NCBI RefSeq assembly: GCF_001618955.1
Contig: NZ_LVYV01000053.1
Location: 1-64,000 of the forward strand
DNA: 64,000 nt
Origin: Tardiphaga robiniae
Lineage (GTDB): Bacteria; Pseudomonadota; Alphaproteobacteria; Rhizobiales; Xanthobacteraceae
Direction: 5' to 3'
Made by a program: the position numbers and the translations under genes. Shown one piece after another: positions 50,963-64,000 of this stretch. The notes below the pieces were generated by a model. That model saw nothing but the letters and a program-made list of their open reading frames with translations. It did not search any database and was not told where the DNA came from. Positions within the stretch are counted from its first letter, which is position 1, and each line of letters begins with the position of its first letter.

Positions 50963-51709
50963 CTAACGAGGCGCAACGAAACCTAAAAACGCAATCATCA
51001 TCTCGGTGGCGTGCCGGCGCCGCTGAGCTCTCCAGGACGGCGACGAAAGGTTAGTGCCGAACAAATGCGACAAGGTCGGCGCGTTGGAAATGTGGACATA
51101 GCTCATCGCTACCATGCTGACGTAAAGTTGAAGCGGATCGATGCCGCGCCGAAAGACCCCCTCCTTTTCACCTCGTGAAAGCACTTCCTTGATCGCCAGC
51201 AACAGTGGCGATGACAGCGTCGAGACGCGTTTAGACCGCGTCAGGAATTTCGCGCCAAGAAGGTTTTCGCTGGCGAGAATCCGAATGAAGAGCGGATTCG
51301 CCGCGAAATGGCTGTAGGTAAAATCAAAGAGCTTTATCATGGCCTCCAGCGGCGCCATGTTGTTCAGCTTGAGCCGCTGTTCCTGCACGCGGATATCGTT
51401 GAACACGGTTTCCAGCACCCGGATATACAGCGCATCCTTGCTGCCGAAGTAGTGATAGAGCATGCGCATATTGGCATCGGCGCCGCGGGCGATGGCATCG
51501 ATCCGCGCGCCGGCATAGCCGTTCTCGGCAAATTCGGCGATCGCCGATTGCAGGATGCGTTCGGCGGTGGCCGCGGCATCGCGCGGCCGTTGCGCCGGCT
51601 TGGCCGGGCGCCCCCGCGCCGGTGCCGGCTTGGCGGCAACCGCCGTCTTGCGGTCCTTCGGTTGTGTCGCTGGCTTGGCCATCCGTCGCGTCTTCCCCAG
51701 AGCCGTCAT
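50963..51709 (-). CDS. TetR/AcrR-family regulator linked to the molybdenum hydroxylase
   Basis: The 248-residue protein has an N-terminal Lys/Ala/Pro-rich tail (about 45 residues), then a TetR HTH: ERILQSAIAEFAENGYAGARIDAIARGADANMRMLYHYFGSKDALY. A longer helical C-terminal ligand-binding domain follows. ATG 51709 overlaps the stop of the hydroxylase gene (ATGA), so it is the last gene of that operon. It may autoregulate the operon and the divergent catabolic genes; a palindrome at 55410-55440 is a possible operator. Ligand unknown. Confidence 0.88.
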   Translation of the reverse strand: MTALGKTRRMAKPATQPKDRKTAVAAKPAPARGRPAKPAQRPRDAAATAERILQSAIAEFAENGYAGARIDAIARGADANMRMLYHYFGSKDALYIRVLETVFNDIRVQEQRLKLNNMAPLEAMIKLFDFTYSHFAANPLFIRILASENLLGAKFLTRSKRVSTLSSPLLLAIKEVLSRGEKEGVFRRGIDPLQLYVSMVAMSYVHISNAPTLSHLFGTNLSSPSWRAQRRRHATEMMIAFLGFVAPR

Positions 51710-54486
51710 TCGGCGTGGTCTTTCTTCAGGGCCTCAAGGGCTGCCAGCACCTTGTCCGGCGATAGTGGCAACGAGGTGATGCGGACGCCGACAGCGTCCT
51801 CTAGCGCATTTGCAATGGCACTGGCTACGCCGAGAATGCCGGCCTCGCCCACGCCCTTTGCGCCCAGCGGCCCGTGCGCCAGCCCCTGTTCGAGCGTCAC
51901 CGATTCAAAGATCGCCGGAACGTCCGACATGACAGGCACCCGGTATTGTTGCGGGGTCATGCTGACCAGGCGGGCGCCATCAAATACGAGTTGCTCGAAC
52001 AGTGCCTGACCCAGTCCCTGGATGGCGCCGCCTTCGATCTGGCCGCGCACCGCCTCGGGGACCAGGGCTCGTCCCGCGTCCGCGATCGACACCAGCTTGA
52101 GCACAGTGATCTTGCCGGTCTCGGTGTCGACCTCGATTTCGGCGGCGACCCAGTTCGGCATCCAGTAAACAATCGGGGCATTGAGCGCGGCGGCGGAATC
52201 CACCTCGACCTTGAATTCGCCGTCGCCGGAAAACTCCGCGCCCATGCCGCCGTAGTAGCCGCGCATCAGCACCACCAGCGGCGTGGCGGTGTTGCCGCGG
52301 ACGACTTGGCCTTCGACAAGATCGAGTTCCTCCTTGGGGCAACCGAGTTGCCCGGCGGCGAAGGTCAAAACCTTGTCGCGCACCTCTACCGAGGCGCGCC
52401 GGATCGCTTCGCCGGTGACTGCCGTCGCCGAACTGGCGTGGGTGCCCTGGTCGAAGGCGGTCTGGTCGGTGTCGATCGCCGCCCGCGCGATCCGCTCCGG
52501 ATCGAGCTTCAGCACCTCGGCCACGATGCGGCGGAACGCTTCGGTCGCGCCCTGCCCCATGTCGACCGTCGCGCAGTTGATGATCGCGCTGCCGTCGGCG
52601 GTGACCTTGACGCGGGCCTGGGCGAACCGGCCCTGGCCGCCGCCATCCTTGAAGCCAATCGACAACCCCTTGCCGCGCGACAGATGCCGCCTGCCCGGTG
52701 GCGCGCGGCTACCCCAATCAATCTTTTGCGCGGCCAGCTCCAGTCCCGCGACGAGATCGCAATCGATGGTACTGTCGCCTGCGCGATAGGGCTCGCCGGG
52801 CGACAGGAGATTGCGGCGCCGAATCTCGAACGGGTCAATGCCGAGCCGGCGCGCGATCATGTCGACCTGGCTCTCCGACGCCCACGATGCCTGGGTACCG
52901 CCGAAGCCGCGAAACGAGCCCGCCGGCACGGTGTTGGTGCGGACGGCGATCGCCCTGCTGTCGAGCGCCTGCCAGCGATAAGGACCGCCGATGCGATAGC
53001 CTACCTTGTCGGCAACCAGCGGACTGGCATCAGCATAAGCGCCACCATCCAGCACGATGTCGGAACGGCGGGCGAGGAAATCGCCGTCCCGCGATACGGC
53101 GGTTTCCAACCGCAACGTCGCCGAATGCTGCGACAGCGATGCAAAACCTTCATCCATTGTCTGCGTCAGCCGCATGGGCTTGTTGATCTTCAGCGCCAGC
53201 AGCACGACCAGCGGTTCGATCTTGCAATAGCTCTTGGCGCCGAAGCCGCCGCCGATCGGCAGCGTGCGGACCCGCACCGCGTGCTCGGGCAGGCTGCAGA
53301 TCTCCGCTATTTCCTGGCGCAGCAGGAAGGGATCCTGGTTGCACGACCACACCTCGACGCCATCGCCAAGCGGACGCGCGGCGGTCACCGATGGCTCGAG
53401 GTGGACATGCGCCATCCGCGAGAACGCGAAGTCGTCGGTGAAAACGTGATCGGCCGCGGCAAAGGCGGCATCGAGATCGCCGAGCCGGTGATGAAATTCA
53501 TACAGCACATTCGGTGCGTGCTCCATCGCGGTGGTCACGCTGACGCCGTGTGCCGGAATGCCGCCGCGGCTTGGCGTCTCGAACAGCAATGGCGCGCCGG
53601 TGGCCATCGCCTCGTCGGGCGTCGCGACTGCGACGAGCACGTCGTATGATACGGCGATCAGCGACAGCGCCCGGATCGCGGTGGCCGCGTCCACCGCAGC
53701 CACGGCGGCGACGGGTTCGCCGACGTGCCGCACACGGTCGATCGCGAGCAGCGGCTGGTCCTTGATCCACAATCCGTAGGTATGGACCGGGAGCCTGCGC
53801 AGGTCGTCGCCGGTGACGATGGCCAGCACGCCCTCCAGCGCCAGCGCCGGTGCCACATCGATCGCCACGATGCGCGCATGCGGATGCGGGCTGCGAAGGA
53901 GCTTGATCTCGGCGCCACCGGCTGTCGGCGTATCGACGAGAAAGAATGCTTGGCCGGTCACCTTGGCGGTTTCCTCCGGGCGCCAGCGCCGGCCATCAGG
54001 CGCTGCCCGACCCTTCATCGCGATGGCCCTGACGACGGCTTCCTCGATCACCTGATAGCCGGTGCAGCGGCAGACATTCGCGCTCATCCAATTGCGGATC
54101 TGCTCGCGGCTGGGTTCCGGATGGCGTTGCAGCAGGGCTTCAGCGAGCAGGATCATGCCGGGGGTACACATGCCGCACTGGAATGCGTGAGCCTCGACAA
54201 AGGCGCGCTGCATCGCGCTCGGCGCCGCGCCGGCCGGCTGCAACCCCTGCACTGTGGTGACGTTACTACCCGCCACCGTGTCGACCAGCGTGCTGCAAGA
54301 CGTCACCGGCAGGCCGTCGACCAGCACGGTGCAGGCGCCACAGACGCCATGGTCGCAGGCGACGCGTACGCCGCTGCGCGCGCAGCTTTGCGACAGCGCG
54401 TCGGACAGCACGCGCGGCGCGCCTCTGGCGAGCGTCACTTGCTCGCCGTCGAGCGTAAAGGACAGCGTAGTCTCGGTAATGCTCAC
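51706..54486 (-). CDS. Molybdopterin hydroxylase with fused [2Fe-2S] domain (xanthine dehydrogenase family)
   Basis: The GTG at 54486 overlaps the previous stop and is preceded by GGAGG. The 926-residue protein fuses the small iron-sulfur subunit with the large molybdenum subunit. The first about 150 residues hold ferredoxin cysteines (ACDHGVCGACTVLVDG) and the second cluster (CGMCTPGM, CRCTGYQ). From about 165 to 926 is the Mo domain with GEPVAAVAAVD, LPIGGGFGAKSYCKIEP, the RGFGGTQ loop and the catalytic Glu in GAKGVGEAGILG. Such enzymes hydroxylate N-heterocycles, aldehydes or purines with water as oxygen source. The fused layout is less common than separate subunits. The substrate is not readable. 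Confidence 0.9.
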   Translation of the reverse strand: MSITETTLSFTLDGEQVTLARGAPRVLSDALSQSCARSGVRVACDHGVCGACTVLVDGLPVTSCSTLVDTVAGSNVTTVQGLQPAGAAPSAMQRAFVEAHAFQCGMCTPGMILLAEALLQRHPEPSREQIRNWMSANVCRCTGYQVIEEAVVRAIAMKGRAAPDGRRWRPEETAKVTGQAFFLVDTPTAGGAEIKLLRSPHPHARIVAIDVAPALALEGVLAIVTGDDLRRLPVHTYGLWIKDQPLLAIDRVRHVGEPVAAVAAVDAATAIRALSLIAVSYDVLVAVATPDEAMATGAPLLFETPSRGGIPAHGVSVTTAMEHAPNVLYEFHHRLGDLDAAFAAADHVFTDDFAFSRMAHVHLEPSVTAARPLGDGVEVWSCNQDPFLLRQEIAEICSLPEHAVRVRTLPIGGGFGAKSYCKIEPLVVLLALKINKPMRLTQTMDEGFASLSQHSATLRLETAVSRDGDFLARRSDIVLDGGAYADASPLVADKVGYRIGGPYRWQALDSRAIAVRTNTVPAGSFRGFGGTQASWASESQVDMIARRLGIDPFEIRRRNLLSPGEPYRAGDSTIDCDLVAGLELAAQKIDWGSRAPPGRRHLSRGKGLSIGFKDGGGQGRFAQARVKVTADGSAIINCATVDMGQGATEAFRRIVAEVLKLDPERIARAAIDTDQTAFDQGTHASSATAVTGEAIRRASVEVRDKVLTFAAGQLGCPKEELDLVEGQVVRGNTATPLVVLMRGYYGGMGAEFSGDGEFKVEVDSAAALNAPIVYWMPNWVAAEIEVDTETGKITVLKLVSIADAGRALVPEAVRGQIEGGAIQGLGQALFEQLVFDGARLVSMTPQQYRVPVMSDVPAIFESVTLEQGLAHGPLGAKGVGEAGILGVASAIANALEDAVGVRITSLPLSPDKVLAALEALKKDHAE

Positions 54487-55367
54487 GCGGCGACCTCCCG
54501 GATCAGGCGGGACAGCAGAACCGACGCCACGGTCTCGCGATAGTTCGCGACCCCGAACCACGGCACCGTCGGCTCCGGCATCTGCCGGACCGCGCTCCGC
54601 GCCGTGCCGTCGGCTTGCGCATGCAGCTCAGACAATGCGACGCCGGCAACTGGCAGGTCGCAGGCGAACGGCCATCGATGGCACCCACCTATCACCGCGC
54701 ACGCGCTCACCACCGCACCGCCGGCGCAATCAATGCGCAGCGCCACCGTCAGGATCGGCCGCAGGCTGCGATCATAGAGAAGCCGCCGCGTCGTCCCCGC
54801 CATCGGCAGAGGCACGCGCAGTTTCTCGACCAGGCCGCCGCGCTCGAAAAATGAATCCGCGGCCTCGCCGAACTTCCGCACCGCGATCATGTCGCCGCGA
54901 GAATCGCGTGTCGAATACACCATGGACGCGCCGAGCGCCGACAGCAGCACGGCGCCTTCGTAGCCGGACATCAGCGCGAGCAGATTGCCCGCCACCGTCC
55001 CCTGCATCCGAATCCGGATATTCGCGATCCGCTCCCAGCATCGCGCGAGATCGGGAAGCCATGCGAGCAGCACGTCACTGTTCGCCACGGCATCATGGCG
55101 GGCGCCCGCGCCGACCTCGATCGCGTCGCGCTGCGGCGACAGGCGGATGGCATCGATATCGGCGACGCCGCCGAGGAGCACCAATGCCGGGGGTGCCAAT
55201 CCATCCTTCATGCGGTTGACGACATCGATCCCACCGGCCATCGCCATCGCCCCCGGCTCGCGGGCAAGCATCCCGCGCGCCTCATCGAGGTCACGGGGAC
55301 GAAGCAACAGGAAATCGGGAATTCGGCTGCGCGATCGATGACTGGCGACATATGAAGAGTGTGACAT
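54483..55367 (-). CDS. FAD-binding subunit of the molybdenum hydroxylase
   Basis: The ATG at 55367 gives 294 residues of the CoxM/XdhB-type FAD subunit: PDFLLLRPRDLDEARGMLAR, AGGIDVVNRMKDGLAP (FAD pyrophosphate region), IEVGAGARHDAV, and the second FAD motif IRMQGTVAGNLLALMSG. It passes electrons from the iron-sulfur clusters to an acceptor. It is the first gene of the minus-strand operon with the Mo subunit and TetR, and is divergent from the Asp/Glu-racemase-fold gene. Confidence 0.88.
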   Translation of the reverse strand: MSHSSYVASHRSRSRIPDFLLLRPRDLDEARGMLAREPGAMAMAGGIDVVNRMKDGLAPPALVLLGGVADIDAIRLSPQRDAIEVGAGARHDAVANSDVLLAWLPDLARCWERIANIRIRMQGTVAGNLLALMSGYEGAVLLSALGASMVYSTRDSRGDMIAVRKFGEAADSFFERGGLVEKLRVPLPMAGTTRRLLYDRSLRPILTVALRIDCAGGAVVSACAVIGGCHRWPFACDLPVAGVALSELHAQADGTARSAVRQMPEPTVPWFGVANYRETVASVLLSRLIREVAA

Positions 55368-55409
55368 GGCTTCCAATAATGTGGGCCGTTCCCAGTTTCG
55401 GCACCGGAC

Positions 55410-55440
55410 TTGCAAAGACGTTTGCACCCTCCTTGCAAAG
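55410..55440. promoter_or_regulatory. Candidate TetR operator in the divergent region
   Basis: TGCAAAGACGTTTGCA at 55411-55426 is a perfect 6-bp inverted repeat with a 4-nt spacer. A second TTGCAAAG copy lies at 55433-55440, directly repeating 55410-55417. It sits in the 100-bp gap between the divergent hydroxylase operon and the racemase-fold gene, where a regulator of both would bind. Confidence 0.5.
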
Positions 55441-55467
55441 GGCCTGCCAACACAGAAGGCTTGCGTA

Positions 55468-56214
55468 ATGACAGACAGACTTGGCTACCGTCTCAAGATC
55501 GGAATCGTAATTCCATCGACCAACACGACGGTGCAGCCGGAGACCGACGGAATGCGTCCGACCGGCGTCACCAATCACATCGGGCGCATTCATATTCCCG
55601 ATCTGCCGCTCGGCAATGATGCGGAGTTCGAAACCATGGTCGACGCCATCGGTCCCGATCTCTATCCTTGCATCGACCGCGTGATGACCTGCAAGCCGAC
55701 GCATCTGGTGATGGGGATGTCGATCCCGACATTCTGGGGCGGCAAGGCCGGCAGCGAGCGGTTGCTCGTCCGTCTCGAAGAGCGCGCGAAAGTGCCGGTC
55801 ACCATGGGCTCCGCAGCATGTATTGCAGCGTTGAAGTGCTTTCCGGCCGTCAAACGCATCGGCCTTCTGACACCCTATCAACCGGTCGGCGACGCCAACG
55901 TAGCGCGCTATTTCAGCGACCATGGATACGAGATCGCCGCGGTGCATAGTTTGAAACGACCGAGCGAAGTGCAGATCGCCCACGCCACCGAGCTCGACAT
56001 CATCGACGGGTTCAAGACGCTTGCGGCAATCGGCGTGGACGCCATCGTTCAGGCCGGGACGGATCTCGCGGCGATCGATCTTGCCGCTGAAGCCGAGCGA
56101 TGGCTTGGCATTCCCGTGATTGCGATCAACGCCGCCACTTACTGGCGCGCGCTTCGCCGCAGTGGAATCGACGATCGCATGGACCACTGCGGTTCTCTTC
56201 TCGCACTTCACTAG
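55468..56214 (+). CDS. Asp/Glu racemase-fold protein (maleate isomerase-like) lacking catalytic cysteines
   Basis: ATG 55468 gives 248 residues of the Asp/Glu racemase / maleate cis-trans isomerase fold: GIVIPSTNTTVQPETDGMRP, HIGRIHIPDLPLG, KRIGLLTPYQPVGDANV and IPVIAINAATYWRALRRSGI. The two positions where maleate isomerases have catalytic Cys carry other residues: VMGMSIPTFWGG (about 81-92) and VQAGTDL (194-200). The five Cys present are elsewhere (68, 75, 118, 124, 241). Its chemistry is therefore uncertain. It is the first divergent gene facing the hydroxylase operon; the next gene lies 275 bp away, in a gap where no gene was seen. Confidence 0.75.
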   Translation: MTDRLGYRLKIGIVIPSTNTTVQPETDGMRPTGVTNHIGRIHIPDLPLGNDAEFETMVDAIGPDLYPCIDRVMTCKPTHLVMGMSIPTFWGGKAGSERLLVRLEERAKVPVTMGSAACIAALKCFPAVKRIGLLTPYQPVGDANVARYFSDHGYEIAAVHSLKRPSEVQIAHATELDIIDGFKTLAAIGVDAIVQAGTDLAAIDLAAEAERWLGIPVIAINAATYWRALRRSGIDDRMDHCGSLLALH

Positions 56215-56489
56215 TCGTCGCGGCGCTGTTTGCACAAGGTTCGTCCATCCGACGAGAAAAACGCGTGTCCCATAAGCAGAAACGCTGCAAAGCCCCCTCA
56301 TCCGCTCGTGCCAACGCTTTCTCCGCACACCGCCCTTCACCACAAAATCCAACGATCATAGAGAGTTATCGTCATGCTCCATCTTCCCGGTGCCGTCAGG
56401 ACCTGCTGCATAAGTAAGCATGTTATGCGTACATACCAGACCCCGTTGACCTCCCTCGCTCGACAGGCCCTGCAGCAGGAACCAGCGCA

Positions 56490-56957
56490 ATGACCAGAAA
56501 CGCCGAAGCACAACTCCGCGCCCTGGGCCTTGAACTGCCACCGGTGCCACCGGCGCGAGGCGCGTTCAAACCGTATTCGCGATCGGGGTCGCTTATCTTT
56601 CTCGCCGGCCAGATCTGCGAGTGGAACGGCGAGGTCCGCTTCGCCGGGCAGGTCGGGGTGATGCATGATCTGCCGACCGGACAGAAGGCCGCGCAACTGT
56701 GCGCGTTAAATCTGTTGGCTTCGCTGAGCCTTGCGCTCGATGGCGAGCTTGACCGCGTAGTTTGCTGCCACCGGCTAGGCGGCTTCGTTTGCGCGCAACC
56801 CGGCTATCCCGATGTCCCCAAGGTCGTGAACGGCGCTTCCGATTTGATGTTTGCCGTATTCGGCGAGCGCGGTCGCCATGCGCGCACGGCCGTCGGCGTC
56901 GCCACGCTTCCCGCCGGAGCCAGCGTCGAGGTTGATGGAATCTTCGAAGTGTCCTGA
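56490..56957 (+). CDS. RidA/YjgF-family protein
   Basis: The 155-residue protein has the RidA-like trimer fold: FKPYSRSGSLIFLAGQICEWNGEVRFAGQVG, an AAQLCALNLLASL helix, VVCCHRLGGFVCAQPGYPDVPKVVNGASDL and the C-terminal RTAVGVATLPAGASVEVDGIFEV. The Arg of the RTAVGV motif that binds substrate carboxylate in RidA is kept. This subgroup (YjgF-like 1) differs from RutC in sequence. RidA deaminates reactive enamines or imines, which would arise in breakdown of N-heterocycles. The ABC importer begins 111 nt further on. Confidence 0.85.
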   Translation: MTRNAEAQLRALGLELPPVPPARGAFKPYSRSGSLIFLAGQICEWNGEVRFAGQVGVMHDLPTGQKAAQLCALNLLASLSLALDGELDRVVCCHRLGGFVCAQPGYPDVPKVVNGASDLMFAVFGERGRHARTAVGVATLPAGASVEVDGIFEVS

Positions 56958-57068
56958 CACCAAAATGAGCACGCGTCCAACTGGCACGTTTCTCGCTAGA
57001 GATCGTTCAGCCGTAAGTAAGCGTCTTCTGCATTCAAATCGTGCACTCACCCAGAAAGCAGTTCAGTC

Positions 57069-58199
57069 ATGACCGATGATACGCGCCATCCTACCTCCCT
57101 CCCGCATACCGGCCTTACCCGACGCTCGGCGCTTAAGGCCGCCGCCGGGCTCGCCGTTGCCGGCGCCACGACACGTTTAGCAGCGCCGGCACTCGCGCAG
57201 GCCGCTCGGCCCGTCAAGCTGACGCTGCCGTGGCTGGCCAACGGCTCGACGCTGTTCACTTACGTCGCCAAGAACCAGGGCTTCTTCAAGAAGCGCGGCA
57301 TCGACATCACGATCAGCCGCGGCTTCGGCTCGGTGGCAGCCGCTCAAGCGGTCGGCGCCGGCGAGTTCGATTTCGGCTTTATCTTCGCCGGCGGTACCAT
57401 TCTCGGCGCCGCCCGCGGCCTTCCGCTAGTAGCGGTATCGACGCTTGGCTACGACGCGACGATGGGTATCGCCCTGCGCGGCGACAGCCCAATCAAGACG
57501 GCGAAGGATTTGCAGGGCAAGAAGATCGGCACCGTGCCGACCTCCGCGGAGTCGCCGTACTGGCCTGCGTTCGCGCGCAAGGCCGGGATCGATACCGGTG
57601 CCGTCACCATGGTCCAGATGGACAACCGGGTGCTTGAGCAGAGCCTGGTCAACAAGCAGGTCGATGCCATCACCGCGATCGGCACGTCCAGCATCCCCGT
57701 GATCATGGCCATGAAGGAGCCATGCCGTTTCATGCTGTGGAGCACGGCGGGCATCACGCTCTATGCCGGCCAAGTGGTGACGCGGCAGGATGTGTTCGCC
57801 AAGGACAAGGAACTGTGTCGCGCCGTCAACGACGCGCTGACGGAGGGATTGGCCTACGCGCTGAAGGATCCGGAAGCCGGCGTCGATATCTTCCTCAAGG
57901 AAATTCCGGAAATGGGCATCACCGCGGGCGGGAAGGAAAACGCCAGAATCTCGCAGGGTTTAATGCACTACACCGTAATTTCGAAAGAAGCCGAAACGCA
58001 GTCGATCGGCTATACCGACATGGCGAAGGCCAGCGAAATGGTCGACATGGTGATGGAATTCGGCGCGCCGAAGGATGCCAAGAAGCCGGTGGTCAGCGAG
58101 TTGTTCACCAACGAGCTGGTGGGTTCGGTGAAGTTCTCGCCGGAGGAATGGGCGAAGGTGAAGAAGAACGTCGCCGAATACGCCGCGATCCTCGGCTGA
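57069..58199 (+). CDS. NMT1/SsuA-type ABC substrate-binding protein
   Basis: The 376-residue protein has a twin-arginine-like signal (GLTRRSALKAAAGLAVAGATT) with cleavage near ALAQA. The mature NMT1/THI5-like fold shows LPWLANGSTLFTYVAKNQGFFKKRGIDITIS, a SAESPYWPAFARKAGI helix and an EFDFGFIFAGG early loop. Such proteins bind thiamine precursors, taurine, nitrate or pyrimidine-like ligands. It is followed by its ATPase (4-nt gap) and permease, so this is the binding unit of a complete importer. Clustering with rutB-like genes suggests a heterocyclic or ureido ligand. Confidence 0.88.
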   Translation: MTDDTRHPTSLPHTGLTRRSALKAAAGLAVAGATTRLAAPALAQAARPVKLTLPWLANGSTLFTYVAKNQGFFKKRGIDITISRGFGSVAAAQAVGAGEFDFGFIFAGGTILGAARGLPLVAVSTLGYDATMGIALRGDSPIKTAKDLQGKKIGTVPTSAESPYWPAFARKAGIDTGAVTMVQMDNRVLEQSLVNKQVDAITAIGTSSIPVIMAMKEPCRFMLWSTAGITLYAGQVVTRQDVFAKDKELCRAVNDALTEGLAYALKDPEAGVDIFLKEIPEMGITAGGKENARISQGLMHYTVISKEAETQSIGYTDMAKASEMVDMVMEFGAPKDAKKPVVSELFTNELVGSVKFSPEEWAKVKKNVAEYAAILG

Positions 58200-58203
58200 T
58201 CGC

Positions 58204-58988
<785 letters not shown>

Positions 58989-58992
<4 letters not shown>

Positions 58993-59840
58993 ACGGGATT
59001 GTAAACAATTCAGATCTGGCGCCGACGAGCGCGGCTTCCGCGCGGGCACCCCTGCCGGCGCCGAGTCGGCCGTCGCGCCTCGGCGTGCTGCGCGGGCAGG
59101 CCCGCTTGGTCGTGCTGCCGGTCATCGCCGCGGCGCTGGTGATCACGGGCTGGGAAGCCGTGGTCCGCATCAAGCAGATCCCCAACACGCTGCTGCCCGC
59201 GCCGTCCGCGGTGGCGATCCGTCTGACGGAGACGTTGCCGTTTCTGCTCGGCCAGGCCGTGCCGACGACGCTGGAAACCATCGCCAGCTTTCTGATCTCG
59301 ATGGTGCTCGGTATCAGCCTCGCGGTGCTGATCTGCAAGTCGCGGCTGATGCGCGACGCGCTGTATCCGAACATCGTGCTGTTCCAGTTGATTCCGAAGA
59401 TCGCGCTGGCGCCGCTGTTCATCGTCTGGCTCGGCATTGGCAGCACGTCGCGCATCACCTTCGGCGTGTTCATCTCGTTCTTTCCGGTGGTGGTAGCGAC
59501 GCTGACCGGCCTGATGTCGGTCGACCGCGACCTGCTGCGGCTGTGCAAGGCCGTCGGCGCGGACGAGTCGCGGATCTATGCCAAGGTCCGGTTTCCCGCG
59601 GCCGTGCCGCATCTGTTTTCCGGACTGAAGATCGCCATCACCTTCGCCATGATCGGCGTCATCGTCGGCGAATTCATCACCGCGCAGGCCGGGCTCGGCT
59701 ACATGATCCTGTTCGCGGCCTCGCAGGCCGAGATGACGCTGATCTTCGCGTCGATTGTCGTGCTCTGCGTGATCGGTCTCGTTCTCTACGGGATTATCGT
59801 CATGGCCGAAGCCCTGGCGCTCAAGAAGTATGGAGCCTGA
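58989..59840 (+). CDS. ABC transporter permease (SsuC/TauC type)
   Basis: GTG 58989 overlaps the ATPase stop. The 283-residue inner-membrane protein has about six transmembrane segments. The EAA-loop region reads CKAVGADESRIYAKVRFPAAVPHLFSGLKIAI. Other family strings are PKIALAPLFIVWLGIGSTSRI and FAMIGVIVGEFI. A hydrophilic N-terminus of about 40 residues precedes TM1. It completes a three-gene importer and is followed after 3 nt by rutB. Confidence 0.92.
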
Positions 59841-59843
59841 TCG

Positions 59844-60569
59844 ATGGACTCATCCAGCCCGGCCATCGTCCTGTCGCACGCCGCGGATGCCGTGACGATC
59901 ACGGCTGAACCGGAGAGCCTGACCATCGGCCTGGCGACCACGGCGCTGGTCGTGGTCGACATGCAGAATGCCTATCTGTCCAAGAGCGGCTATCTCGACC
60001 GCGTCGGTTTCGACGTCTCGACCAGTGCGCCGGTGATCGACAAGGCGGCAGCCGTTCTGGCGGCCGCGCGCGGTGCCGGCATGTTCGTCATCCATCTGCA
60101 GAACGGCTTCGACGCGCTGCAGACAGAAGCCGGCGGGCCGACGTCACCTGTCTGGCACAAGTCGAACGCGCTGAAATACATGCGCGCCAATCCGGCCGAG
60201 CGCGGCAAACTGATCACCCATGGCACCTGGGACCATGACTTCGTCGAGCCGATGCGCCCCGTCGCGGGCGAGGCGGTGATTGCCAAGGCGCGCTACAGCG
60301 GCTTTGCCGGCACCCACCTCGAACAACTGTTGCGTGCGCGCGGCATCACCACCATCGTGCTGGTCGGCGTCAACACCAATGTCTGCGTCGAAGCCACCCT
60401 GCGCGATGCCTATCATCGCGAATTCTTCGCGCTGATGCTTCCGGACGCCACCTTGCAGGCCGGATCCAATTCGATCTTCGAGGCAACGGTGTTCAATGTC
60501 ACTCGCTTCTTCGGCTGGGTGACCTCAAGCGAAAAAATGATTGCCGCACTGGCGGCCTTACCCAAATGA
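59844..60569 (+). CDS. RutB-like ureidoacrylate amidohydrolase (isochorismatase family)
   Basis: The 241-residue protein has the cysteine-hydrolase triad Asp39 (VVVDMQNAY), Lys148 (IAKARYSGF) and Cys181 (NTNVCVEATLRD). Beyond the triad it shares long RutB-specific strings: GYLDRVGFDVST, QNGFDALQTEAGGPTSPVWHKSNAL, and RFFGWVTSSE. RutB cleaves ureidoacrylate (or its peracid) to release ammonia and CO2 in uracil breakdown. No RutA, RutE or RutF is within reach, so the physiological substrate may be another carbamoyl or ureido compound. It overlaps the next gene by ATGA. Confidence 0.85.
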   Translation: MDSSSPAIVLSHAADAVTITAEPESLTIGLATTALVVVDMQNAYLSKSGYLDRVGFDVSTSAPVIDKAAAVLAAARGAGMFVIHLQNGFDALQTEAGGPTSPVWHKSNALKYMRANPAERGKLITHGTWDHDFVEPMRPVAGEAVIAKARYSGFAGTHLEQLLRARGITTIVLVGVNTNVCVEATLRDAYHREFFALMLPDATLQAGSNSIFEATVFNVTRFFGWVTSSEKMIAALAALPK

Positions 60570-61369
60570 GCATGACAATGCCGGATTTTCTCGATCGTCC
60601 CGACGGGCGCCTGGCCTACGAGGTCAATGGCAGCGGCCCGCCGCTGTTGCTGGTAACGGGGCTGGGCGGATCGCGGCGCTACTGGGCGAACGTGGTTCCG
60701 GCGCTGGCGCACGAATTCACCGTGATCACCCACGACCACATGGGCATCGGCGACAGCCAGGGCAACCGCATCGCGCACACGGTGGAAGCCCTGACCGATG
60801 ACGTCGTGGCGCTGATGGACCACCTCGGACTTCCGCGGGCCAACCTGCTCGGTCATTCGACCGGCGCCGCCGTCGGTCAGATCCTGGCCCAGGATCATCC
60901 ACAGCGGTTGCTCAAGCTGGTGCTATCTGCCGGATGGGCCGGTCCAGATCCTTATTTTGAACTGTGCTTCGAAGCCCGAAAATCACTGTTGCTGGGATCT
61001 GGCATCGCCGCCTACCAGCGCTCCTCCGCCATATTCCTGTACCCGCCGTCCTGGATCAGCGCGGATGCCGCGCGTCTTGAAGCGTTGCTGGCCGGCTTCA
61101 TCGCGTCGACGCCCCCGGCCGATGTGCTTGCCGCCCGCATCGACATGATCATGGCGTTTAACCGCCGCGCGCGCCGGCAGGAGATCGCCGCACCGACCCT
61201 GGTGATCTGCGCCGCAGACGACCAGTTGACGCCGATGCATCTTTCCGAGGAGCTTGCCGCCGGCATCCCGCAATCACGGCTGGTGCGCCTCGCCTGGGGC
61301 GGCCATGCCTCATCGCAGACCGCTCCGGAAGACTTTCTGAACGCTGTGCTCGAGTTCTTGCGAACTTGA
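60566..61369 (+). CDS. RutD-like alpha/beta hydrolase
   Basis: The 267-residue alpha/beta hydrolase has nucleophile Ser98 (LLGHSTGA), Asp219 (ICAADDQLTP) and His247 (WGGHASS). LVTGLGGSRRYW near the oxyanion hole and SSAIFLYPPSWIS in the cap resemble RutD, which speeds hydrolysis of aminoacrylate to malonic semialdehyde. NicD, the N-formylmaleamate deformylase, has a similar fold and is the main alternative. ATG overlaps the rutB stop. It ends 100 bp before the convergent tcuB stop. Confidence 0.78.
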   Translation: MSMTMPDFLDRPDGRLAYEVNGSGPPLLLVTGLGGSRRYWANVVPALAHEFTVITHDHMGIGDSQGNRIAHTVEALTDDVVALMDHLGLPRANLLGHSTGAAVGQILAQDHPQRLLKLVLSAGWAGPDPYFELCFEARKSLLLGSGIAAYQRSSAIFLYPPSWISADAARLEALLAGFIASTPPADVLAARIDMIMAFNRRARRQEIAAPTLVICAADDQLTPMHLSEELAAGIPQSRLVRLAWGGHASSQTAPEDFLNAVLEFLRT

Positions 61370-61469: not shown

Positions 61470-62681
61470 CTACTCGCCCCCGAGCCCCAGCCGGTTCGGC
61501 ATCCGCTTCTCGACATTGAATTTCAAAAGCGCGGCAGACCGAAAGATGCCGTGGGCGAACTTGCCGTAAGGCAATGTCAGGAACAGCGCCATCACGGTGC
61601 CGAGATGGATCGCAAGCCATAGCGCCATGAAGCGCGTGTCGCGCAGCAGTAGCAGCGCAAAGCCGGTGGCGCTGACCAGCAGCAGCAGCATGATGAAGCC
61701 GCGGTCCATGGCATTCTGCTTGCTGTCGGCGCGTAGCGCATCGCGCTTGAGATTGAGCCACAGCAGTCCGATCGGACCGATGATGAGACCGATGCCGCCG
61801 AGCGAGCCGAGAATGACAGGTGCGCTGGTGAAGGCGTAGGGCGCGTGGAGATTCCACAGATAGTGATACAGCGTCGCCACGCAGGTTGCCGCGAAGCACA
61901 ACAGGAATCCGCACAGCGTGAAATGGTGGAAGCGCCGTCGCCACAGCGTAAAATTATCATCTCCTTCGTTGCAACCGTCGCCATGCCCACCGCCGAGATA
62001 GCGCATCCGCGCCACGTCAGTGATGGCTTCGGCCACAGCCGGCATCCGCGCTCTGGCGGCCGCGGCGATATCGGCGGGATTGCCGTCTTTGGTCGGCGAC
62101 ACCTCGCGCCAGAATTTGACCACGCCGATCGCGAGCGCCAGCATCGCGAACAGGAACACGACGCCGAACAGCAGCGCCAAGAAGTTGTGCGGGAAGATCG
62201 CGTAGAAATTCCCGGCCAACGGTTCGTGGATCAAGCGGCCGTTCATCGCGATCGCCAGGATCATGAACAGCGCGAGACCGCCCGAGAGCGCGAAGGCGAC
62301 CGTCAGTCCGGCGCGCTCATAGAGACGACCGAAAGCGCGCGGCCACGCATAGTCCTGATAAGTGCGCACGCGCACCTTGGCCATCGCCTGCGGGACATTG
62401 ACTGCAAATTCATGCGGCGGCGCATATTGGCAAGCGTAAAGGCAGGAACCGCAGTTATGACAGAGATTCGCAAGGTAATGCGTATCGGCCTTTTTGAATT
62501 CGAGCCGCCGCGTCATCGCCGGGAACACCGCGCAAAATCCCTCGCAATAACGGCACGCGTTGCAGATCTGCATGACGCGTGCGATCTCGGCCTCGCCGGC
62601 GGTGAGCGCATCGGCGAAACTGACGCCGCCCTCGCAGGCGCCGCCGGCGACGGGCGCTTCCAGATCAGTGACCGGCGGCAT
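61470..62681 (-). CDS. TcuB, iron-sulfur membrane protein re-oxidising TcuA
   Basis: The ATG at 62681, behind GAGGAG, lies 17 nt inside the end of tcuA. The 403-residue protein starts with two [4Fe-4S] sets ([12 protein letters not shown] and [14 protein letters not shown]) and continues with about six transmembrane segments typical of CitB/TcuB (for example [21 protein letters not shown], and [24 protein letters not shown]). TcuB passes electrons from reduced TcuA flavin to the quinone pool during tricarballylate oxidation to cis-aconitate. The family is also called CitB. A TctC-type carboxylate binding protein is 12 kb away and may be unrelated. Confidence 0.9.
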
Positions 62682-64000
62682 AGTCGAGCTCCTCGTGGAA
62701 TGTGGGATGGCGATGCCCAGCGCTCGCCGCGGCATTGACGCCGGCGATGCGGCCGAACGCCGTGCCGATGCTCATGCCGACGCCGGCGGTGTAGCCCTTG
62801 CCGAGCACATTGCCGGCGACCATCTCGCCGGCGGCAAACAGATTGGTGCTGGCGACGTCGTTGAAGCGGCAGGCCGCCGTGGCATCGGTCTTCATGCCGA
62901 GATAGGTGAAGGTGATGCCGGGCTTGAGCGGATAGGCATAGAATGGCGGCGTGTCGATCACACGGGCCCAGTGGGTCTTGGCCGGGGTGAGGCCGTCGGT
63001 GCGGCAATCGTCGAGCGCGGTGTGATCGAAGGTACCGGGACGGCAGGCCGCGTTATACGCCGACAGGGTCTCCATGAAGACCCCAGGATCGACGCCGATC
63101 TTCACCGCGAGTTCATCCAGCGTATTGGCCTTGGTGCCGTCGAACACCGGCGGCATAAAGCGGCCGATCGCCTTCTGGTCGATGATCGACCATGCGGTCT
63201 GACCGGGCTGCTGGGCGACGAGGCGGCCCCAGATCGCATAGCGCTTCGGCCAGAAATCCTCGCCCTCGTCATAGAAGCGCCTGGCCTCGCGATTGACGAC
63301 GACGCCGAGCGAGACGCAATCGATCCGCGTGCAGATGCCGCCATCATAGAGCGGCGCGCGCGCATCGATGGCGACGCAATGCGCCTGCGTGGGATCGCCG
63401 ATGGTATCGGCGCCGGCATCGATCATGAACTTCAGCAACACACCCTGATTGAAGCGGGTGCCGCGGATCAGGAAGTTCTCCGCGGTCCATTCACCGCGCT
63501 CGTTCTGCCCCCAGGCCTCGCGCTGCCATTCCAGATTCGATTCGAAGCCACCGCAGCCGAGCACGCAACTTTTTGCGGTGATGCGCTCGCCACTCTCGGT
63601 GATCGCGGCGACAAACGCGCCATCCTTCAGCTTGAGACTCTTCACAGGCATATCGTAGCGGATCGCGATACCCAGCGCCTCGGCGCTGCGATAATACGCA
63701 TTCACCAGCGCCTTGCCGCCCCCCATGAAGAACGCATTGGTGCGCGCCACATGCAGCGCGCCCGACAAAGGCGGCTGGAAATGCACGCCGTGCTTGCTCA
63801 TCCATGGCCGGCAGCGCGACGAGTGCCGGATCACCATCCGCGCCAGTGGCTCGTCAGTCATGCCGCCTGTGACCTTCAAGAGGTCCTGCCAATACTCTTC
63901 CTCGGGATAGGCTTCGACCAGCACGTCCTGCGGTTCGTCATGCATGCAACGCAGATTGCGCACATGCATGGAATTGCCGCCGCGCCATTCCTTCGGCGCG
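62665..64000 (-). CDS. TcuA, FAD-dependent tricarballylate dehydrogenase (5' end beyond window)
   Basis: The frame stays open to the window edge, reading [15 protein letters not shown] before the first internal ATG at 63969, so the FAD Rossmann start lies outside. The visible about 445 residues match TcuA: RGGN-x-x-H-x-RNLRC, [52 protein letters not shown] and the FAD-site end [30 protein letters not shown]. The family belongs to the fumarate reductase flavoprotein group. It overlaps tcuB by 17 nt. The full protein is usually about 465-470 residues. Confidence 0.9.

What the first reader, a model, noticed from the sequence alone, without database searches (positions are those of the whole stretch)
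50963..61369. Hybrid catabolic cluster: molybdenum hydroxylase with RutB/RutD-like hydrolases and an NMT1-type importer
Seen: a fused Mo hydroxylase, its FAD subunit and a TetR are divergent from a racemase-fold gene, RidA, a complete ABC importer, a RutB-like and a RutD-like hydrolase. Known: RutB and RutD act on ureidoacrylate and aminoacrylate in uracil breakdown opened by RutA; nicotinate degradation uses a Mo hydroxylase, an alpha/beta hydrolase (NicD), an isochorismatase (NicF) and a maleate isomerase (NicE). This cluster takes pieces of both but shows no RutA, RutF, NicC or NicX. Inference: it degrades an N-heterocycle or ureido compound by a route not matching either, with Mo hydroxylation in place of the oxygenase step.
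Basis: partly seen in the sequence, partly recalled or inferred. Interest (0 to 1): 0.85.

Follow-up and report, generated by a model that had tools for sequence, protein, structure and literature searches.

The report
Rut-like catabolic cluster without RutA
A bacterium carries a compact ten-gene set that joins a molybdenum enzyme to proteins resembling the second half of the known uracil-breakdown pathway; a few relatives carry it too, some without the usual ring-opening enzyme, so it probably degrades another ring-shaped nitrogen compound that is not yet identified.

Summary
Window 50963-61369 encodes a FAD subunit, a fused Fe-S/Mo hydroxylase and a TetR, divergent from a racemase-fold protein (Rac), a Rid protein, an NMT1-type ABC importer, and RutB-like and RutD-like hydrolases. 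Both arms recur together in four other genomes (two complete, one lacking the RutD-like gene, one cut by a contig end) with different flanks, and an operator-like palindrome lies between the arms. Two carriers have no RutA over the family cut-off; one of them also has no NicX homologue. So it is one inherited module, independent of RutA and NicX. The 'nicotinate' half fails: Rac lacks both maleate-isomerase cysteines, and the hydrolases are far closer to RutB/RutD than to NicF/NicD. RutB' keeps RutB's catalytic and signature residues but forms its own clade below the family cut-off; RutD' has a serine nucleophile that the six canonical-type RutDs seen lack. Best model: Mo hydroxylation and ring opening of a pyrimidine- or ureide-type heterocycle, then Rut-like decarbamoylation and enamine hydrolysis. 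Substrate and ring-opening step are inferred. New variant of a known kind; not found described in my literature searches.

The parts
50963..51709 (-). TetR-family regulator, last gene of the left arm
   Evidence: TetR_N + TetR_C_29; best NCBIfam match RutR, 48.8 bits against a cut-off of 368; 72% identical in Aquabacter
51706..54486 (-). Fused [2Fe-2S]/molybdopterin hydroxylase (926 aa from the conserved start)
   Evidence: Fer2_2, MoCoBD_1, MoCoBD_2; catalytic-Glu motif GVGE present, and that Glu and eight Fe-S region Cys are invariant in the three-row alignment A2; 97/67/66% identical in G001/G035/G262
54483..55367 (-). FAD subunit of the Mo hydroxylase
   Evidence: FAD_binding_5; less conserved than the Mo subunit (44% in G035, 37% in G262)
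55421..55439 (.). Operator-like perfect palindrome TTTGCA-N7-TGCAAA between the divergent arms
   Evidence: Only match in the window at up to 1 mismatch, 0.09 expected; TTGCA and TGCAA half-sites aligned in all five genomes
55468..56214 (+). Rac: Asp/Glu-racemase / maleate-isomerase fold protein without the catalytic cysteines
   Evidence: Amdase Pfam; AF2 mean pLDDT 94.5; best fold match 2xed maleate isomerase, TM 0.87; catalytic Cys columns hold no Cys
56490..56957 (+). Rid-family protein (PF14588), not RutC
   Evidence: YjgF_endoribonc; no RutC-model match; Arg132 invariant in five orthologues
57069..58199 (+). NMT1/THI5-like ABC substrate-binding protein
   Evidence: NMT1; solved relatives include THI5, THI13 and the pyrimidine-precursor-binding protein 3ix1 at E 1e-6 to 1e-9, best hit an unassigned solute-binding protein 4nmy
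58204..58992 (+). ABC importer ATPase
   Evidence: ABC_tran; 82-98% identical in G035/G011/G001
58989..59840 (+). ABC importer permease
   Evidence: BPD_transp_1; 75-99% identical in G035/G011/G001
59844..60569 (+). RutB': RutB-like isochorismatase-fold amidohydrolase
   Evidence: RutB model 281.9 bits, below cut-off; Asp/Lys/Cys and the HKSNALK and RYSGF signatures kept; separate clade, support 100/99.7
60566..61369 (+). RutD': RutD-like alpha/beta hydrolase with a Ser nucleophile (GHSTG)
   Evidence: RutD model 226.1 bits, just below cut-off; GHSTG against GHA-G in six canonical-type RutDs

Best explanation
The ten genes form one regulated, horizontally moving catabolic module that imports and mineralises an N-heterocyclic compound of the pyrimidine/ureide type by a route that needs neither RutA nor NicX. 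Inferred order: (1) the NMT1-type ABC importer brings the compound in; (2) the Mo hydroxylase (FAD + Fe-S/Mo chains) adds an oxygen from water next to a ring nitrogen; (3) the ring opens, with the cysteine-less racemase-fold protein Rac as the best candidate for the ring-opening, tautomerising or decarboxylating step; (4) RutB' removes the carbamoyl group of the resulting ureidoacrylate-like acid; (5) Rid' and RutD' turn the enamine or amide into aldehyde or acid and ammonia; (6) the TetR protein represses both arms from an operator between them. Shown here: the gene set, co-inheritance, kept catalytic residues of RutB', the Ser nucleophile of RutD', loss of the Rac cysteines, existence without RutA or NicX. 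Inferred: the compound, steps 2, 3 and 5, and the TetR-operator link.
For: Co-inheritance of both arms in four other genomes with different flanks. Carriers without RutA over cut-off (G011, G035) and without NicX homologue (G035). RutB' keeps the Asp and Cys that were mutated in deposited RutB structures, and the EAGGP-SP-WHKSNALK stretch shared with most canonical-type RutB rows but not with the NicF or the BiuH-like relative aligned beside it. RutB' is 49-53% and RutD' 36-41% identical to the canonical-type rows; NicF gave no match to RutB' and NicD matched RutD' only over 101 residues. Binding-protein relatives include pyrimidine-precursor binders, and the canonical rut operon of the window genome also has an NMT1-type binding protein (others in the family by resemblance). 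Operator-like palindrome between the arms. Rac family beside a hydroxylating flavoenzyme in 18 of 39 loci, or with a Mo hydroxylase in the locus in 6 of 39.
Against: No gene with a demonstrated ring-opening activity is present; Rac's reaction is unknown. RutB' and RutD' miss the equivalog cut-offs. One carrier (G011) has no RutD-like gene in the unit, and Rac also occurs without the other genes even at 72-73% identity (L032, L033); Caballeronia keeps Rac-Rid-TetR with a broken Rac and no Mo subunit match at E <= 1e-100 in its genome. Fold families such as isochorismatase and alpha/beta hydrolase change substrate easily. The palindrome was picked after looking; 9 of 100 shuffles of the window hold at least one match at up to 1 mismatch, and the perfect form was found in only two of the five genomes.
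Confidence: 0.5

Rival explanations
1. A second uracil/thymine pathway: a rut copy that borrows RutA from elsewhere, with the Mo hydroxylase acting on an upstream base such as a hydroxypyrimidine.
For: In the window genome the canonical rut operon also lacks an adjacent RutA, and an orphan RutA exists (699 bits); G001 and G262 also have RutA over cut-off.
Against: Aquabacter (G035, 99% complete) has the full cluster and no RutA match at E <= 1e-3, and G011 (one contig) has none over cut-off. The window genome already has an over-cut-off RutB and RutD, and RutB' is a separate clade.
Confidence: 0.15
2. Oxidative pyrimidine route (recalled from the literature): Mo uracil dehydrogenase makes barbiturate, which is opened by a barbiturase; RutB' then acts on the acylurea.
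For: A Mo hydroxylase heads the module. Barbiturase/cyanuric-acid-hydrolase family proteins (PF09663) exist in G011 and G035, the two carriers without RutA over cut-off.
Against: PF09663 has no match in 3 of 5 carriers (G000, G001, G262), and no such protein was recognised in any cluster. The G035 copy lies at the edge of a locus with a 32% RutB relative, which rather suggests cyanuric acid or biuret use.
Confidence: 0.1
3. A nicotinate-like pyridine route: Mo hydroxylase, an NicD-type hydrolase, an NicF-type amidase and a maleate isomerase.
For: Same fold families as the nic enzymes; Rac has the maleate-isomerase fold; window Mo chain 37% identical to the Mo chain of the nic cluster of G001.
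Against: Rac lacks both catalytic Cys. The hydrolases match RutB/RutD and not NicF/NicD. No NicX homologue in G035 at E <= 1e-10.
Confidence: 0.07
4. A route to another ureido or cyclic-amide compound (purine fragment, substituted imidazolone or hydantoin) in which RutB' removes a carbamoyl group from a vinylic or aromatic ureide; pyrimidines are not involved.
For: RutB' clade has QNGF where the canonical-type rows read QNGW, or show another QNG motif match in L012 and L019, perhaps a different pocket. A sister cluster (L088) with a 52% Mo chain and NMT1-type importer carries a cyclic-amidohydrolase-family enzyme and, in the stretch seen, no RutB'.
Against: No purine- or hydantoin-specific enzyme recognised in the unit; ergothioneine (thiohydantoin) genes lie beside it only in the G001 locus among those seen.
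Confidence: 0.18

Closest known systems
Rut pathway (rutABCDEFG, uracil catabolism)
   Same: RutB-like and RutD-like hydrolases, a Rid protein, a divergent TetR-family regulator, and an NMT1-type importer as in the rut operon of the window genome
   Different: No RutA in the unit, none over cut-off in two carrier genomes; Rid is not RutC; RutD' has GHSTG, not GHA-G; a Mo hydroxylase and Rac are added; RutB and RutD cut-offs not met
Nicotinate pathway (Mo hydroxylase, NicC, NicX, NicD, NicF, NicE)
   Same: Mo hydroxylase, alpha/beta hydrolase, isochorismatase-fold enzyme and maleate-isomerase fold
   Different: No NicC or NicX in the unit; hydrolases are Rut-type; Rac has no catalytic cysteines
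Xanthine-oxidase family Mo hydroxylases (aldehyde oxidoreductase, 4-hydroxybenzoyl-CoA reductase, 6-hydroxypseudooxynicotine dehydrogenase)
   Same: Domain order, Fe-S and Mo domains, catalytic Glu motif
   Different: No curated equivalog reached (best 430.5 of 994.55 bits); substrate unknown
Maleate cis-trans isomerase / arylmalonate decarboxylase
   Same: Fold (TM 0.87 to 2xed; profile E 1.7e-31)
   Different: The second catalytic Cys column is an invariant Gly (197) and the first (positions 83-84) holds no Cys

Membership tests
Rut pathway | RutA ring-opening monooxygenase present in the carrier | tested here: not met
   Over cut-off in 3 of 5 carrier genomes (G000, G001, G262), not in G011 or G035; not seen in the unit
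Rut pathway | RutB at equivalog level | tested here: not met
   281.9 of 377.95 bits; separate clade
Rut pathway | RutB catalytic Asp, Lys and Cys | tested here: met
   Aligned; deposited D-to-N and C-to-S variants of RutB mark Asp and Cys; the Lys by analogy with the BiuH triad
Rut pathway | RutC 3-aminoacrylate deaminase | tested here: not met
   The Rid protein does not match the RutC model at E <= 0.001, while the genome's own RutC scores 231.6 bits against a cut-off of 169.1; deaminase activity itself not testable
Rut pathway | RutD at equivalog level | tested here: not met
   226.1 of 238.5 bits, with a different nucleophile motif
Nicotinate pathway | NicX ring-cleaving dioxygenase | tested here: not met
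   No homologue at E <= 1e-10 in G035; only a 34% match on another contig in the window genome
Nicotinate pathway | Maleate isomerase with two catalytic cysteines | tested here: not met
Nicotinate pathway | NicF-type maleamate amidase and NicD-type deformylase | tested here: not met
   RutB' gives no match to the NicF of the G001 nic cluster and RutD' only a partial one to its NicD; NicF and NicD there are named by position beside a confirmed NicX
Xanthine-oxidase family Mo hydroxylase | Fe-S and MoCo domains, catalytic Glu, FAD subunit | tested here: met
Oxidative (barbiturate) pyrimidine pathway | Barbiturase family (PF09663) in carriers | tested here: not met
   Matches in 2 of 5 carriers only
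Rid deaminases | Active-site Arg | tested here: inconclusive
   Arg132 is invariant in five orthologues; its match to RidA Arg105 is by motif from memory, not aligned here

The most novel reading that the evidence does not exclude
A RutA-independent aerobic pathway that opens a pyrimidine-type ring by Mo hydroxylation followed by a cysteine-less maleate-isomerase-fold enzyme, Rac, acting as a new kind of ring-opening or tautomerising enzyme, and that hands a substituted ureidoacrylate to RutB'. The Rac family (39 loci found, 18 beside a flavin monooxygenase) would then be a widespread unrecognised enzyme family that works after an aromatic hydroxylation.
Probability: 0.25. Interest if true: 0.75.

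Novelty: new variant of a known kind. Interest (0 to 1): 0.5.

Why it matters
Oxygen-dependent uracil breakdown of the Rut type is defined by RutA. A co-inherited set that keeps RutB- and RutD-like enzymes but replaces the front end with a Mo hydroxylase and a cysteine-less isomerase-fold protein points to a further route for N-heterocycles and makes it testable in environmental bacteria. It also shows two annotation traps: a maleate-isomerase fold without the catalytic cysteines, and RutD-like proteins with and without a serine nucleophile.

Tried and rejected
Rejected or weakened: (a) a nicotinate half (Rac cysteines, hydrolase comparison, NicX search); (b) an ergothioneine link: in G001 genes scoring above the ErtD, thiohydantoin desulfurase and thiourocanate hydratase cut-offs lie tail to tail with TetR, but I saw no such genes in the gene calls of the window beyond 30 kb or of L030, and L031 is short; (c) TcuB/TcuA-like genes at 61470-63969 as part of the unit: convergent, and no match to them listed in L067 or L030; (d) the barbiturate route.

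Weak or null steps: a RutB tree with distant rows, had an extremely long branch and no starred set holding the window row, so I rebuilt it from the 19 rows over 200 bits. The long operator pattern found nothing, not even the known place, because I had written it wrongly. The Rid search in 397 genomes of the order was unspecific: 201 of 397 match at E <= 1e-40; of 12 high-scoring neighbourhoods fetched only G262 is seen to hold the cluster, and part of the printed gene table was cut. Literature searches gave no description of this gene set; most subscription papers are not in that library. Papers seen: passages only of PMC5806882, PMC8113886 and PMC4996985; all others as search listings. In the Rac motif table L046 and L056 were left out, L059 was entered as two halves, and stops were to be shown as X (none was reported). 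The Foldseek list was read to its 50 best rows of 1489.

Full report
What is there. The left arm reads FAD subunit, Fe-S/Mo fusion, TetR on the minus strand; the right arm reads Rac, Rid, binding protein, ATPase, permease, RutB', RutD' on the plus strand. Neighbours overlap by 4 bases at four junctions, as expected of operons. The window belongs to the same genus as G001, whose contig matches the named record Tardiphaga sp. P9-11 by length and content, so I call it Tardiphaga-like; that is an inference.

One unit. A RutB-model search of 61 genomes found RutB'-type hits (275-299 bits) in four: the window genome, G001 and G011 of the same genus (3 of 18 genomes listed as own or same genus) and G035 of the same family. 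The fetched neighbourhoods show the whole cluster in G001 (93-99% identity) and in G035, Aquabacter sp. P-9 (44-82%), and everything except the RutD-like gene in G011, where a second importer and a second isochorismatase-fold gene follow RutB'. A scan of one genome per species for Rac found 39 loci; three hold the cluster (L030 and L067, which are G035 and G001, and L031, Acuticoccus mangrovi, cut by the contig end inside the ATPase), one holds Rac-Rid-TetR only (L059, Caballeronia, Rac broken), and 35 hold Rac without a recognised set of the rest. The scan used two peptide patterns and may miss members. The genes outside TetR and outside RutD' differ between the window, L067 and L030. The unit is therefore compact, sporadic and inherited as a block, probably by transfer (inference).

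Common control. Between the divergent starts (FAD at 55367, Rac at 55468) lies TTTGCACCCTCCTTGCAAA, the only match in the window to the palindrome TTTGCA-N7-TGCAAA at up to one mismatch; 0.09 matches are expected, and 9 of 100 shuffles hold one or more. I chose the pattern after seeing the region. Its half-sites are aligned in all five genomes, the perfect form was found only in the window and L067. A TetR operator serving both arms is likely but untested.

Independent of RutA and NicX. RutA is over its cut-off in G000, G001 and G262, below it in G011 (best 77 bits), and has no match at E <= 1e-3 in G035. A NicX homologue is missing in G035 at E <= 1e-10; in G000, G011 and G262 only 32-35% relatives exist elsewhere, and G001 has a true nic cluster elsewhere. 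Against over-reading this: in the window genome the canonical rut operon (SBP, RutB 420.6 bits, RutC, permease, RutD, ATPase) has no RutA beside it, and RutA is an orphan on another contig. Absence next door is normal here; absence in the whole genome is the better argument.

The hydrolases are Rut-type but distinct. RutB' shares with RutB the Asp and Cys that were mutated in deposited RutB structures, a Lys, and the EAGGP-SP-WHKSNALK and RYSGF stretches. In a 19-row tree the four cluster RutB' rows form one side of a branch with support 100/99.7, with a Roseomonas plasmid copy as neighbour (97/94) and 14 other rows opposite. The Roseomonas copy has none of the other cluster genes in its 26.7-kb stretch as annotated. 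The cluster rows and the Roseomonas row read QNGF, where most canonical-type rows read QNGW. RutD' is 36-41% identical to canonical-type RutDs and reads GHSTG; the six canonical-type RutDs seen read GHA-G (own, L014, L015, L083, second copy in L020; the E. coli RutD structure 3v48). The RutD-like genes inside the operons of L020 and L021 also read GHSTG. A nic cluster in G001 (L090), whose dioxygenase matches solved 2,5-dihydroxypyridine dioxygenase at 7.7e-81, gave reference NicF and NicD, named by position: NicF gives no match to RutB', and NicD matches RutD' over 101 residues only.

Rac is not a maleate isomerase. The model (pLDDT 94.5) is closest to maleate isomerase 2xed (TM 0.87, 20% identity). 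In the profile alignment the second catalytic Cys of maleate isomerase and the Cys of arylmalonate decarboxylase fall on Gly197, invariant in all 32 rows; the first falls at positions 83-84, where none of the rows that cover it has Cys. Two Mumia rows have a Cys one position before Gly197. What Rac does is unknown. In 18 of 39 Rac loci a flavin monooxygenase of one family lies within 1.5 kb, mostly within 50 bases; in 6 of 39 a Mo hydroxylase is in the locus, three of these being the cluster itself. None of the 53 other loci held then (many short, five of them carrying the cluster's own Rac) shows that monooxygenase at the same threshold. This suggests that Rac-family proteins act after an aromatic hydroxylation.

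Sister arrangements. Acuticoccus carries a second system (L088) with a 52% Mo chain, separate Fe-S and FAD subunits, 44-66% identical importer parts, an alpha/beta hydrolase and a cyclic-amidohydrolase-family enzyme. L032 joins a 72% Rac to relatives of that alpha/beta hydrolase (51%) and amidohydrolase (56%), though its Mo chain is only 28% identical to that of L088, so the triangle is loose. It still points to C-N bond hydrolysis after ring hydroxylation.

Model and confidence. I commit to a module for a pyrimidine- or ureide-type N-heterocycle: Mo hydroxylation, ring opening possibly by Rac, decarbamoylation by RutB', enamine or amide hydrolysis by Rid' and RutD' (0.5 overall). RutC is a 3-aminoacrylate deaminase and RutD's role was left open (passages of PMC8113886), so the split of work between Rid' and RutD' is open too. 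Rivals: RutA-borrowing pyrimidine route 0.15, barbiturate 0.10, nicotinate-like 0.07, other ureides 0.18.

Novelty. Each part belongs to a known family, but the combination is not described in the papers that my searches reached (open-licence library only). I rate it a new variant of a known kind. It is more than ordinary annotation because it is conserved, lives without RutA, and holds a cysteine-less member of a well-known fold; it is less than a breakthrough because substrate and chemistry are unknown.

Noticed in passing
L023, L082, L083; G035, G011, G013, G017, G023: Canonical rut genes are split or RutA-less in this family: an orphan RutA in the window genome, and RutB operons in genomes with no RutA over cut-off. 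What opens uracil there is unclear.
   Followed up: partly
L019, L020, L021: RutB-Rid-permease-RutD-ATPase operons with a GHSTG-type RutD, and a second GHA-G RutD copy nearby.
   Followed up: partly
39 loci, L030-L068: Cysteine-less maleate-isomerase-fold family, beside a flavin monooxygenase in 18 of 39 loci.
   Followed up: partly
L071, L072, L073, L024: Another recurring operon with a TetR relative (44-52%), an isochorismatase-fold hydrolase and a Rid protein; in L071-L073 also a BMP-type (nucleoside-like, by eye) ABC importer.
   Followed up: no
L088:8000-19137: Sister Mo hydroxylase / NMT1 importer / amidohydrolase cluster in Acuticoccus mangrovi, with a Rieske-like protein and an SDR by eye.
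   Followed up: partly
L067:406-4616: Genes above cut-off for hydantoin-5-propionate amidohydrolase, thiohydantoin desulfurase and thiourocanate hydratase (ergothioneine use) beside the cluster in Tardiphaga sp. P9-11.
   Followed up: partly
window 61470-63969: TcuB/TcuA-like pair (name by eye, no family search run) convergent with RutD'.
   Followed up: no
L059:3089-3804: The Rac match is split into two frames in Caballeronia, beside intact-looking Rid and TetR and a BMP-type importer by eye.
   Followed up: no
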